Origin: Panopea generosa | Taxonomy: Eukaryota; Mollusca; Bivalvia; Adapedonta; Hiatellidae | Assembly: GCA_029582155.1 (NCBI GenBank) | Contig: CM055898.1 | Coordinates: 19,494,229 to 19,558,228 of the forward strand | DNA length: 64,000 nt | Direction of reading: 5' to 3' | Translations under genes and position numbers: made by a program | The notes under the pieces: generated by a model | What the model was told of the DNA's origin: nothing | Databases searched by the model: none | What the model saw: the letters and a program-made list of their open reading frames with translations, nothing else | Shown here: positions 46,601 through 52,600 of the stretch, piece by piece | Numbering within the stretch: position 1 is the stretch's first letter | Layout: every line of letters starts with the position of its first letter

Positions 46601-49600
46601 TCGGACACCCTGTATAAATAGAATGACACCATTTCACAACATTGTATTGGATTTATAGCATATAATTTTTCCACCAACCTAAAATTTTATGTCATGTGAT
46701 AACATGGAGAGTTAATGTTTATGGTTCTGTTGGTTTAGTCATTTCATATATTTGCCTGGTTAAATATCACTCATGTGGTCGAGTGGTCTAAGGCACCATC
46801 TCAAGATCACTAACCTCTCACCCCTAAGGTCATAGGTTTGAGTTCTGATTGCTCCAAAAAACTTTTTGTGAGAAAGTTTGCCAGTTATGTAACACTGATA
46901 TAAAATTGGAGGTGTACTGTTCTGATTGGCATATTTTTCTAGGAAACGGTCATTTTTAGCATTTTCACAGTGATTTAAATCATTATTATACACGTGAGTT
47001 AACACACAACCTCTGCTATCAACATGCATATTTTATGTAATGAAACGGATGGAATATTAATACAGTTAACATATTTATCTTAATCAGTGCACTTAATATT
47101 TCAAATTTAAATTTAACTTTCAATAATCTAATAGTTAAATAGGCACACTAAATAAAAACTATTGGATAACATACAGATCTAGTTAGAGAAGTAGGTCTAA
47201 GTTTTAGGTACAGGTAAATGCTTTGCATTTTGGATGTAACAAAATTTTATCCACATCCATTTCATTTGGATTTAATTTGGTTGTCAAGGTCCCCCCCATG
47301 AAATCAACCAAAATTAATGATTTTTCACAGTATGTGTATTTTTCTTTCTTTCTTTCTTGTTGAGGTGATTAAAAAAAAAAGGTAAATGTGCCATTTTCCT
47401 GAGTAACATGATAAAAAGAATCTTACATTCATGCTTATTAATTATTTAATTTATAAAATTTGTTGGTAAAAAACATATATCTATAGCTTTAGAAATATTT
47501 CTAAAACAAATGTTTAACCCACCAGATGTTGCCATTATACTTAAAATTGATTGAAATTATATTGTTTTGCAGGTCTATAAATGCATATCTGTATAAATTA
47601 TCTTTATGTTTGATAGGCATTGTAGGCATTGCGGCATTAACCCATATCATTTTGATATTTCCTTCAACAATATTTTTAAATGCTAAAACTTAGAATTAAA
47701 TATCCCATTAAGTGTCAATGAGAATTGAATGAGTAAGGAACAATGCCCAATCAAAGATGAGATAATGTATTCATGTTGCTCAAAGCTCAGGGGCCGTTTT
47801 CATGTACATGTACCTAATATAGATTATTAAACTTTAATCCTCTACAACATATTTTTTTTTCAGGCTCTTAATTGTTACTTGAAATCATTACTACATTAAT
47901 TTACTACACACAGTAACAGCTATTTCGCGTCTTATTGGTAACACAAACAACATGCAATATGATTAGTATTAGTTAAGTTTTAAATGCATATATAATTGTC
48001 TTAAAATATTTTTGTCTGATTTTGTGCAGTTAAATTGAAATAAAAGTTAAAAAAAAACGATATGATGTTCAATAGAGCCTCACATAATGTAATTTTGCCA
48101 ACTCGTTTAATAAATTCAATAATAAATGAGCAATGATGTAAGATCCTTTATGAATATTTGTTTCAACTGATATGTGTGTATTTTTCCTGACAGTGCTGGT
48201 GTTGGAAGGACTGGTACATTTATAGCTGTCGACAGACTCAATGAATTTCTCAGGAGTCCAAACTTTTCTTTTGACACAACTATAGACATATTTGAAATAG
48301 TGATGAGCATGAGAGAAAACAGAGTCCTCATGGTACAGACAGAGGTAATTAATTCTTTTTTGAAACCATTTATTACTCATCTCTTTTTCTCTATATACTT
48401 CTTATACAATTATTCAAGTGCAAGTTAAAGAATCATGAGAAATTCTGCTCTATTAGTCAGCATTGTTCGATGTACTGTATACCCTCAAATAAATGCTTCC
48501 CCCTAATAAATGCCCTACCCACCTAATTTAATAAAAAATAAAATGACTTGACACTGTGGATGTTGATCTTTAACACAAATAAGTTATATGTACATTTCAA
48601 GTCTGGCTTAAACATTTTAAAGTTGACTAAATGTTCCAGTACTGGCAGTGTTATGCCATTTTGCTAAAGGGCAAAGGGATGGGAGTTTATTGGGACCAGA
48701 GACAGTTTAAGCTAAGAGGGTTCGATCCCTGTTCAGGTCATACCCAATACTTAGAAAATGGCACCACTTGGCGCTCAGCATTTTGAGGATAGTTCTAGGT
48801 CTGGTAAGGCCCGTGTCAGTATAATGTGACTTGGTGGGATGTAATACCATGTGTCTGTGACATGGCACTCTAGTGTTACAGCGCTTCAAATACTGTCTCT
48901 AGTAGATATGGTAGTGATGAAACTATACAGAAATGTTGAAAACGTTGCTAAACACCATAATTATAACAACTACCATGTTTTGATTATGTCGAATTGATAT
49001 TACGGTACAAGTATATGAATACTGTTTTACAGTCTCAGTATGTGGTACAGGTATATGAATATTGTTTTACAGTCTCAGTATGTGGTACAGGTATATGAAT
49101 ACTGTTTTACAGTCTCAGTATGTGGTACAGGTATATGAATACTGTTTTACAGTCTCAGTATGTGATACAGGTATACAAATATTGTTTTACAGTCTCAGTA
49201 TGTGGTACAGGTATATGAATATTGTTTTACAGTCTCAGTATGTGATACAGGTATACAAATATTGTTTAACAGTCTCAGTATGTGATACAGGTATACAAAT
49301 ATTGTTTTACAGTCTCAGTATGTGGTACAGGTATATGAATATTGTTTTACAGTCTCAGTATGTGGTACAGGTATATAGATATTGTTTTACAGTCTCGGTT
49401 TGTGGTACAGGTATGAAGATATTGTTTTACAGTCTCGGTATGTGGTACAGGTATATAGATATTGTTTTACAGTCTCGATATGTGGTACAGGTATATAGAT
49501 ATTGTTTTACAGTCTCGGTATGTGGTACAGGTATATGAATACTGTTTTACAGTCTCGGTATGTGGTACAGGTATATAGATATTGTTTTACAATCTCAGTA

Positions 49601-52600
49601 TGTGGTACAGGTATATGAATATTGTTTTACAGTCTCAGTATGTGGTACAGGTATATAGATATTGTTTTACAGTCTCAGTATGTGGTACAGGTATATGAAT
49701 ATTGTTTTACAGTCTCAGTTATATAGATATTGTTTTACAGTATCAGTATGTGGTACAGGTATATAGATATTGTTTTACAGTCTCAGTATGTGGTACAGGG
49801 ATATGGATATTGTTTTACAGTCTCAGTATGTGGTACAGGTATATAAATATTGTTTTACAGTCTCAGTATGTGGTACAGGTATATGCATATTGTTTTACAG
49901 TCTCAGTTTGTGGTACAGGTATATAGATATTGTTTTACAGTCTCAGTTTGTGGTACAGGTATATGAATATTGTTTTAGTCTCAGTATGTGGTACAGGTAT
50001 ATGAATATTGTTTAACAGTCTCAGTATGTGGTACAGGTATATGAATATTGTTTTACAGTCTCAGTATGTGGTACAGGTATATGAATATTGTTTTACAGTC
50101 TCAGTATGTGGTACAGGTATATGCATATTGTTTTACAGTCTCAGTTTGTGGTACAGGTATATAGATATTGTTTTACAGTCTCGGTATGTGGTACAGGTAT
50201 ATAGATATTGTTTTACAGTCTCAGTATGTGGTACAGGTATATAGATATTGTTTTACAGTCTCGATATGTGGTACAGGTATATAGATATTGTTTTACAGTC
50301 TCGGTATGTGGTACAGGTAAATACATATTGTTTTACAGTCTCGGTATGTGGTACAGGTATATAGGTATTGTTTTACAGTCTCATTATGTGGTACAGGTAT
50401 ATAGATATTGTTTTACAGTCTCAGTATGTGGTACAGGTATATAGATATTGTTTCACAGTCTCAGTATGTGGTACAGGTATATACATATTGTTTTACAGTC
50501 TCAGTATGTGGTACAGGTATATAAATATTGTTTTACAGTCTCAGTATGTGGTACAGGTATATGCATATTGTTTTACAGTCTCAGTATGTTATACAGGTAT
50601 ATTGATATTATTTTAAATTCTATGTATATGATACAGGTATATAGATATTGTTTTACAGTCTCAGTTTGTGATGATCCATGATTGTTTTCAACAAATGTTG
50701 GATGCCAAGAAGGAATCACTGGCAGTCATAGAATCTGAGGAGAATCTGTATATCAATGAAGCTTATGGTAGGTTGCAATCAAGCATTATTTTTATTAAGT
50801 ATATGTAATATATTGCTTAAAAGTGATTGTCTGCTTTTTGTTGTTGGGGATAAGGACACATTATGAAAATACTGAGTTGCTCGGAGTGGGGTAGTTGAGT
50901 GAAGTGGGTAAGAAATGACATTAAGCCACGATCTTTCTACATGGTAACAATTATGTGCAATGAGCGAGATCATGCAAAGATCTCTTTACATGGTTACAAA
51001 TATATGCAATGAATGAGATCATGCAAAGATCTCTCTGTATGGTAACAAATATGTGCAATGAATGAGATCATGCAAAGATTTCTCTACATGTTAACAAATA
51101 CGTGCAGTGAATGAGATCATACAAAGATCTCTCTACATGGTAACAATTATGTGCAGTGAATGAGATCATGCAAAGATTTCTCTACATGTTAACAAATATG
51201 TGCAGTGAATGAGATCATGCAAAGATCTCTTCATGGGGCTGTGTTTCTTAATTTTTTAGCTCAATTGTAAAGAAAGTTCAGGGCCTATATAAATCATATT
51301 AATTGTTCACAATTGTGTTGTTTTGGGGGTCCATTTGATTGAGCCTAGGTTCAAACCAATGGCCTCTGGTAGAGCAACCATCAACCTATCCACTATACCA
51401 CTGCCCCTCTTTAAGATAGTTGCAAAAAAATAAACTGCCAAGATCTATTCACATACATGTACAGTTTTCGTGTCTGCAGGTGGTATTTCTTTATTTTCAA
51501 ATATTAACATCAATAATATATTAACAACCCCAAAAAGACATCTGCACTAAAGCAAGGATATATTGCCACACAGAAAGACATCTGCACTAAAGCAAGGATA
51601 TCTTGCCACACAAAAAGACATCTGCACTACAGCAAGGATATCTTGCCACACAAAAAGACATCTGCACTACAGCAAGGATATCTTGCCACACAAAAAGAGA
51701 TCTGCACTACAGCAAGGATATATTGCCACACAAAAAGACATCTGCACCACAGCAAGGATATCTTGCCACACAAAAAGACATCTGCACTACAGCAAGGATA
51801 TCTTGCCACACAAAAAGAGATCTGCACTACAGCAAGGATATATTGCCATACGAAAAGACATCTGTTCTACAGTAAGGATATCCTGCCACACAAATTAGTC
51901 CTCTGCACTACAACAAGGATATCCTGCCAGACAAAAAGACATCTGCACTACATTAAGGATATATTGCCATACGAAAAAGTCCTTTGCAGTACAGCAAGGA
52001 TATTTTGCCATACAAAAAAGACCTCTTCACTACAGTAAGGATATCTTGCCATACAAAAAAGACCTCTGCACAACAGCAAGAATATCTTGCCATACAATAA
52101 AGACTGCTGCACTACAGCAAGAATATCTTGCCATACAATAAAGACTGCTGCACTACAGCAAGGATATCTTGCCATACAAGACAGTTTAAGTATTGTAAAG
52201 ATTATAGTGAAGTTAGGGTGGATGAAAGGAAAGCCAACTACTAATTTCCTGATTAACTGTTAAAAGCCGATATGAATTTTATTTATCATCAGCAAAACTT
52301 TAAAAGATTAAGTTTTAAAATTTGATTTCTCTGCCCCATGCATGTAGGCTATAGAAAAAAGTTGATAGAGACATTAGAAGATCAATGATGGAAGAGTGTA
52401 AGTCCACAGGGGCTAGTGACAGCATATATTCTGTATTTCTATGTATATAATAATGTCTTTATAATAATTTATATGTAGGGATATAGAATATATATTGTCA
52501 CTAGCCCCTGTGTGTAAGTCTATTTGCCATCCATGATGGAAGTGTATGTCCAGAGGGGCTAGTGACAGTATATATTCTGTATCCCTATATATATATATAT

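What the first reader, a model, noticed from the sequence alone, without database searches (positions are those of the whole stretch)
49005..50658. A minisatellite built from exon 20's own splice acceptor plus an in-frame micro-exon-like core
Seen directly: about 41 tandem 40-bp units, each with acceptor ttgttttacag, an 18-nt core tctcagtatgtggtacag and a GT (gtatat). The last acceptor is the real one for exon 20, whose first bases match the core. The core is phase 0 at both ends and encodes SQYVVQ, so splicing in one copy would insert six residues between MVQTE and SQFVMIHD at the catalytic Q-loop without breaking the frame. The core's tggtacag also matches the end of exon 19 (atggtacagacagag), which may be chance. 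Inference: the array arose by tandem duplication of the intron/exon junction and gives the spliceosome dozens of near-identical choices. Neighbouring cores are only 22 nt apart, too close for conventional introns, so any inclusion would join cores several units apart.
Basis: partly seen in the sequence, partly recalled or inferred. Interest (0 to 1): 0.85.

Follow-up and report, generated by a model that had tools for sequence, protein, structure and literature searches.

The report
Splice-junction minisatellite in a clam gene
A 40-base piece of a clam gene spanning the end of an intron and the start of an exon has been copied about 41 times in a row, leaving dozens of look-alike splice sites; this kind of repeat (a "mirage") is already known from lancelets, and nothing here shows that the copies are used.

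Summary
Window 49004-50670 holds a 40-bp array (TRF 42.0 copies, 91% matches) that runs 12 bases into an exon of a bivalve receptor protein tyrosine phosphatase (nearest homologues: Mactra 73%, Ruditapes 72%). Of 42 unit starts, 40 carry AG|TNTC, 39 CAG|GT and 37 a complete 18-nt phase-0 core. The exact core occurs 21 times in the 1.47-Gb genome, always here.
The array starts and ends at the same unit phase, so the founder was probably 29 bp of intron tail plus 11 bp of exon head. The core's last 7 nt and its GT are then intron sequence, and the exon-19 match is probably chance.
This is the architecture of "mirage" minisatellites of amphioxus Adh3 and globin genes, where RT-PCR suggested normal splicing (PMC3087553, passages): a new member of a known kind.
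Against a used micro-exon: no core peptide in 231 fetched homologues, unconstrained core variation (5 N: 2 S), weak donors. All 39 upstream acceptors, used directly, give premature stops. No RNA data were available.

The parts
48194..48344 (+). exon '19' of the receptor PTP: active-site SAGVGRTG...MVQTE, donor GAG|GTAATT
   Evidence: tblastn with bivalve homologues; joined frame
48345..50658 (+). intron between exons '19' and '20'; 1,655 of its 2,314 bases are the array
   Evidence: junctions from homologues; array limits
49004..50670 (+). 40-bp minisatellite, 42 unit starts, running 12 bases into the exon (a 'mirage' array)
   Evidence: TRF, wraparound alignment
49004..49043 (+). first 40 bases in founder phase (GGTACA...TATGT): left edge of the array
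   Evidence: edges printed
50597..50636 (+). most divergent unit (8 of 40 differ from consensus), acceptor AG lost, next to the native copy
50637..50670 (+). terminal copy that holds the native acceptor (TTGTTTTACAG|TCTCAGTTTGTG)
   Evidence: 33 of 34 bases equal to consensus
50659..50767 (+). exon '20' (SQFVMIHD...INEAY), penultimate exon, donor ATG|GTAGGT; next exon starts at window coordinate 68449, outside the window
44484..44635 (+). preceding PTP exon (FPDF loop ... VCHC)
30475..43229 (+). span of earlier PTP-domain exons: about 30475-30597, then 31912-32014, 36134-36213, 42774-42908, 43104-43229
27400..27603 (+). approximate extent of the exon with the transmembrane helix, between FN3 exons and the PTP domain

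Best explanation
It is a mirage-type minisatellite. Shown: a 40-bp unit equal to 29 bp of intron tail plus 11 bp of exon head is repeated in tandem immediately upstream of, and into, that exon. Inferred: one tandem duplication across the 3' splice junction, perhaps primed by the short G or GAT homology at the founder's two ends, seeded the array. Slippage or unequal exchange then amplified it, with homogenisation inside and an old divergent unit at the exon side. Inferred: in most transcripts the spliceosome ignores the copies and joins exon 19 to the native exon 20 acceptor, so the array is mostly neutral, with a low level of mis-splicing into upstream acceptors that would be destroyed by nonsense-mediated decay.
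For: Same phase at both array edges and 11-12 exon bases in the unit. The exact core is found nowhere else in the genome (21 of 21 hits lie in this array). Adjacent units are more alike (0.938) than units 25 or more apart (0.888-0.900), over 38 of 42 units. The region is rich in minisatellites: 23.0% of the window and 39.3% and 22.3% of the two 100-kb flanks, so a founder landing on an exon edge is unremarkable (simulated 0.21 for any edge, 0.11 for an acceptor edge, partly approximate exon coordinates). Core changes are 5 N: 2 S against 38:12 possible. Splice-critical dinucleotide and donor bases show no excess conservation: AG 2 of 76 and GTATAT 7 of 228 non-consensus cells against GGTACAG 6 of 266. 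Homologues keep the junction contiguous (14 of 16; 401 of 423 PTP domains). In amphioxus globins, with the same layout, the authors report that RT-PCR suggests no interference with regular splicing (PMC3087553, passages).
Against: No RNA evidence for this gene. The native acceptor is itself weak (0.8 against a native median of 5.9) and its copies score alike (-2.4 to 3.0), so nothing in the local sequence clearly favours the native one. In human tandem acceptors the upstream site tends to be used more (PMC8055015, passage). The stretch TGTTTTAC before the AG varies least of all parts of the unit (5 of 304 cells), which could hint at constraint, though units are not independent. The likeness of units does not fall steadily with distance (it rises again at 16-17 units). 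The founder could have been a different permutation if edge units have been lost.
Confidence: 0.72

Rival explanations
1. Poison-acceptor array: upstream acceptors are used at an appreciable rate, each giving a premature stop and decay, so that array length tunes the output of the phosphatase gene.
For: 39 upstream acceptor copies nearly identical to the native one; 39 of 39 give a stop, all at least 86 nt before the next exon junction. The human ABCA7 VNTR, which contains the exon 18 donor, yields a frameshifting one-unit retention isoform at 2 +/- 1%, and its length correlates with exon 19 skipping and lower expression (PMC5954066, passages).
Against: In ABCA7 the unit-retention isoform did not depend on VNTR length. 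Amphioxus mirages were reported as apparently not interfering with regular splicing. No RNA or allele-length data here.
Confidence: 0.17
2. Micro-exon array: single or several cores are spliced in, adding SQYVVQ-like hexapeptides at the Q-loop and making phosphatase variants.
For: 37 of 42 units have acceptor, 18-nt phase-0 core and donor; the core begins like the exon, so the QTE-SQ motif would be rebuilt upstream of the insert.
Against: 37 of 39 array donors score below the weakest of 7 native donors (recalled weights). Core changes are mostly nonsynonymous, often at the Q codon. 0 of 231 fetched homologues have the peptide. Neighbouring cores are 22 nt apart.
Confidence: 0.06
3. Raw material for intron or exon gain: an inert stage from which a copy may later be recruited as a new exon, as in the models of Rogers and of the amphioxus globin paper.
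For: Potato RdRp gained an intron and exon by one tandem duplication of an intron-exon stretch with an activated cryptic 5' site (PMC4974935, passages); the amphioxus paper's Figure 7 model.
Against: No recruited copy is seen here, and apart from the terminal copy all units remain intronic in the homologue-based model. This describes a possible future, not a present function.
Confidence: 0.05

Closest known systems
Amphioxus 'mirage' minisatellites (globin BflGb6/BflGb9; Adh3) - PMC3087553, passages seen; original Adh paper, Nucl Acids Res 2002 30:2871, not held, known only through this paper
   Same: Minisatellite-like tandem duplication of an intron-exon boundary; BflGb6 repeats the 3' end of an intron plus the 5' part of the exon; many units carry AG/GT signals; concerted evolution with cluster boundaries left out
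   Different: Bivalve receptor phosphatase; 40-bp unit (150-160 bp in BflGb6, 10-72 bp in Adh3); about 41 copies against 6 and 3 in the two BflGb6 haplotypes; unit contains a complete 18-nt phase-0 core with acceptor and donor
Human ABCA7 intron 18 VNTR (PMC5954066, passages)
   Same: Minisatellite beside an exon that includes the exon's own splice site; each unit begins like that site; 23.7 units in the reference; cryptic use of a unit gives a frameshift
   Different: Donor side, not acceptor side; 25-bp unit; splicing and expression effects measured
[quoted passage not shown]
   Same: A duplicated intron-exon stretch carries the acceptor, and a cryptic 5' site creates a new intron-exon structure
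   Different: One duplication with a recently gained intron; not an array
Variable internal tandem repeats at human exon-intron boundaries (PMC2812944, passages)
   Same: Minisatellite units of about 30 bp, some at exon-intron borders, that can change splicing
   Different: About half exonic, in segmental duplications, about 4 copies on average, transcript evidence
Tandem alternative splice sites, NAGNAG (PMC8055015, passages)
   Same: Several closely spaced acceptors compete
   Different: Shifts of a few nt, not 40-bp repeats

Membership tests
mirage minisatellite | tandem repeat of minisatellite-size units | tested here: met
   period 40, 42.0 copies, 91% matches
mirage minisatellite | unit spans an intron-exon boundary (intron end plus exon start) and lies beside the authentic boundary | tested here: met
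   29 bp intron + 11 bp exon per unit; array runs to 50670, exon starts 50659
mirage minisatellite | many units carry AG/GT splice signals | tested here: met
   AG|TNTC in 40 of 42, CAG|GT after 39 of 42
mirage minisatellite | homogenised centre, boundary unit excluded | tested here: inconclusive
   the last unit before the native copy is the most divergent (8 of 40), but the first units are not
mirage minisatellite | regular splicing not disturbed | not testable with these tools
   no RNA data
mirage minisatellite | length instability between alleles or in somatic cells | not testable with these tools
   one assembly only
functional micro-exon | included in mature mRNA | not testable with these tools
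   no RNA data
functional micro-exon | conserved or constrained coding sequence | tested here: not met
   5 N: 2 S distinct changes against 38:12 possible (small numbers); 0 of 231 fetched homologues hold the peptide
Rogers-type intron gain from an exonic AGGT duplication | duplicated segment is exonic and contains AGGT | tested here: not met
   the unit has CAGGT, but it lies in intron-derived sequence
ABCA7-like donor VNTR | unit contains the exon's own donor site | tested here: not met
   the unit contains the acceptor of the downstream exon; the GT is not a native donor
R3-type receptor PTP (host gene) | FN3 repeats, one transmembrane helix, one PTP domain with [10 protein letters not shown] and QTE loop, short tyrosine-containing tail | tested here: met
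   class name and its defining list recalled; homologue searches showed no second PTP domain after exon 20 in the window or in 100 kb beyond it

The most novel reading that the evidence does not exclude
A hypervariable array of 37 complete in-frame micro-exon cores, each with its own acceptor and donor, lets a bivalve add 6-residue modules at the catalytic Q-loop of a receptor phosphatase.
Probability: 0.06. Interest if true: 0.75.

Novelty: new member of a known kind. Interest (0 to 1): 0.4.

Why it matters
It shows the mirage type of minisatellite, which I read about only in amphioxus, in a bivalve gene with many more copies than the globin cases. Some 40 near-identical acceptors in a row ending in the one native site form a natural test of how the spliceosome chooses among equal acceptors, and every wrong choice has a predictable product. 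If array length varies between individuals it would be a ready-made length series, as ABCA7 was for donors.

Tried and rejected
Exon 19 as a source of the core (tggtacag): 1.7% of 4000 random window 20-mers match as well, and the 8 bases straddle the founder junction; rejected. RNA structure as a reason for the array: z = 0.09 over six units, no signal. Known RNA family: none at gathering score in the window. A search for the core peptide inserted twice between QTE and SQF scored only 14 candidates and matched nothing, not even ordinary PTPs, so it is uninformative; the check on 231 fetched homologues is used instead. In that check 401 of 423 PTP domains fit a contiguous-junction pattern. The other 22 (15 off-pattern, 5 without the motif, 2 truncated) are divergent motifs, read-through-like ends such as MVQTEVS, and a few others, among them a fish protein (P0124) that runs MVQTEGATNS...; 4 proteins lacked the signature. 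The 231 are the best 120 listed in each of two searches, out of 6499 and 7749 hits. Donor, acceptor and branch-site scores use recalled metazoan frequencies and seven native sites of each kind, so they are rough. A paralogue survey of the same intron in the own genome was planned but the machine did not answer. Literature: ten searches; I make no claim that mirages outside amphioxus are unreported. The dog MCHR2 VNTR (PMC8912139, passages) lies in intron 1 and is not described there as lying at a splice site. A paper on short human introns (PMC5435141, passages) was looked at for minimum intron size; no figure was taken from it.
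Full report
What was checked. The window lies in an unnamed 1.47-Gb genome, contig C5, positions 19494229-19558228. Its + strand carries FN3 exons, a transmembrane exon and PTP-domain exons of a receptor-type protein tyrosine phosphatase. 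Homologues: Ruditapes philippinarum 'receptor-type tyrosine-protein phosphatase beta-like', 72% over the part covered, and Mactra antiquata, 73%; solved PTPs (LAR, PTPRS, PTPRB, PTP10D and others) match strongly. So the organism is a bivalve, probably a heterodont (lineage inferred). FN3-like pieces of the gene lie up to about 6 kb before the window, and the last exon (...DPYPEVLYENISTEEMKSELKTEL) starts at window coordinate 68449.

The array. TRF reports 49004-50670, period 40, 42.0 copies, 91% matches. A wraparound alignment gives 42 unit starts, the last being the terminal copy with the native acceptor. Forty units have AG before TNTC, 39 are followed by CAG|GT, and 37 have both around an 18-nt phase-0 core without stops; the commonest peptide is SQYVVQ. 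The exact core sequence occurs 21 times in the genome, 0 times on the other strand, and all 21 places fall in window 49033-50556. The core is therefore local, not part of a dispersed element; inexact relatives of the unit elsewhere were not searched, because that request did not complete.

Origin. The array begins at 49004 with GGTACA... and the match ends at 50670 after ...CAGTTTGTG, the same phase of the unit. The simplest founder is thus 40 bp: GGTACAG GTATAT...TTGTTTTACAG (29 bp of intron tail) plus TCTCAGTTTGT (11 bp of exon). The base after the founder is G; in units with GATACAG the shared stretch at the two ends is GAT, a possible microhomology (inference). It follows that the last 7 nt of the core and the GT behind it are intron-derived, and that the 8-base likeness to the end of exon 19 spans two unrelated founder parts. 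A random 20-mer of the window matches the unit that well in 1.7% of 4000 draws. Most cores read TAT (Y) where the exon has TTT (F) and Ruditapes and Mactra also have F; a few cores read TTT. A TTT to TAT change that spread inside the array is the simplest account (inference).

Evolution inside the array. Adjacent units are more alike (0.938) than units 25 or more apart (0.888-0.900), computed on 38 of 42 units (the three shortened ones and the terminal partial copy left out); likeness rises again at 16-17 units, so the fall is not steady. The unit just before the native copy is the most divergent (8 of 40) and has lost its AG. Non-consensus cells: spacer positions 7-12, 42 of 228; exon-derived 11 nt, 19 of 418; GTATAT 7 of 228; GGTACAG 6 of 266; TGTTTTAC (positions 13-20) 5 of 304; AG 2 of 76. 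The stretch before the acceptor varies least, but units are not independent and the contrast with the non-splice GGTACAG stretch is small. Among distinct core changes 5 are nonsynonymous and 2 synonymous, against 38 and 12 (and 4 stops) among all single changes: no sign of coding constraint, though the numbers are tiny.

What splicing would do. If an upstream acceptor is used without its donor, 39 of 39 cases meet a stop, 7 to 141 residues after exon 19, and all 39 stops lie at least 86 nt before the junction with the last exon, so decay by the usual 50-nt rule (recalled) is expected. If a core is spliced in with its donor the frame is kept. Scores with recalled frequencies: native donors 5.7 to 11.3; array donors 5.0-5.2 except two at 8.4 and 8.1; native acceptors -3.9 to 12.1 with exon 20 at 0.8; array acceptors -2.4 to 3.0. 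The donors are therefore weak, and the acceptors are as good or bad as the native one. A yTnAy branch-like motif lies 54 nt upstream of the native acceptor and 44 nt upstream of the three array acceptors looked at (one also has it at 36 nt), with other AGs at -24 and -16 before the native one (the motif is recalled and not calibrated for bivalves). RNA folding of six units is no better than shuffles (z 0.09).

Relatives. In the alignment of the window's peptide with 16 homologues, 14 of 16 pass through the junction without an insert; P0096 ends MVQTEVS, as if read into an intron there, and P0034 is broken at this point. Among 231 fetched homologues, 401 of 423 PTP domains fit a contiguous pattern, and no protein contains the core peptide. 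These are mostly predicted proteins, so rare isoforms could be missed, and no listed protein was marked as the window's own.

Chance and setting. Minisatellites with at least 5 copies cover 23.0% of the window and 39.3% and 22.3% of the 100-kb flanks. Throwing 12 founder units at random on the window, one or more straddles an edge of 16 exons in 21% of trials, an acceptor edge in 11% (several exon ends approximate). That one array in such a gene sits on a splice junction is not surprising, and another array of this gene holds stronger donor-like sites with no sign of coming from an exon (29-bp array, 24 donors at or above the native median).

Known kind. The amphioxus globin paper (PMC3087553; [quoted passage not shown] The present array meets the structural features of that kind that could be tested; the exclusion of boundary units from homogenisation is inconclusive. 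The human ABCA7 VNTR (PMC5954066; passages) is the donor-side counterpart with measured effects: a unit-retention isoform at 2 +/- 1% that did not change with VNTR length, exon 19 skipping that did, and lower expression with longer arrays. Potato RdRp (PMC4974935; passages) shows that a single duplication of this sort can create a new intron and exon.

Verdict. Observation confirmed; origin well supported (about 0.9); mostly neutral tolerance is the best reading for function (0.72 for the whole statement), poison-acceptor tuning second (0.17), micro-exon use 0.06. New member of a known kind; interest moderate because the number of equal acceptors is large and the products are predictable, so a simple RNA experiment would be informative.

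Noticed in passing
695-1526: 29-bp array with AGGTGAG in 18 places and 24 sites scoring at or above the median native donor of this gene (recalled weights); it ends about 32 bases before an FN3 exon that starts near 1559.
   Followed up: partly
whole window and 100 kb on each side: Minisatellites with 5 or more copies make up 23.0% of the window and 39.3% and 22.3% of the flanks: a minisatellite-rich region.
   Followed up: partly
45737-46468: Open stretches on the - strand, in the intron before the active-site exon, that look like pieces of a Tc1/mariner-type transposase (recalled resemblance from the translation).
   Followed up: no
44484-44635: The WPD loop of this phosphatase reads FPDF here and in the Ruditapes and Mactra homologues; the catalytic [10 protein letters not shown] motif is intact.
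   Followed up: no
42908 / 43104 (homologue P0001): The Ruditapes homologue carries a six-residue insert WNMEGQ at another exon junction of the PTP domain, perhaps alternative or mispredicted splicing.
   Followed up: no
68449 (outside the window): The last exon of the gene lies 17.7 kb downstream of exon 20, beyond the large 35-bp and 40-bp arrays at 54458-59844.
   Followed up: yes
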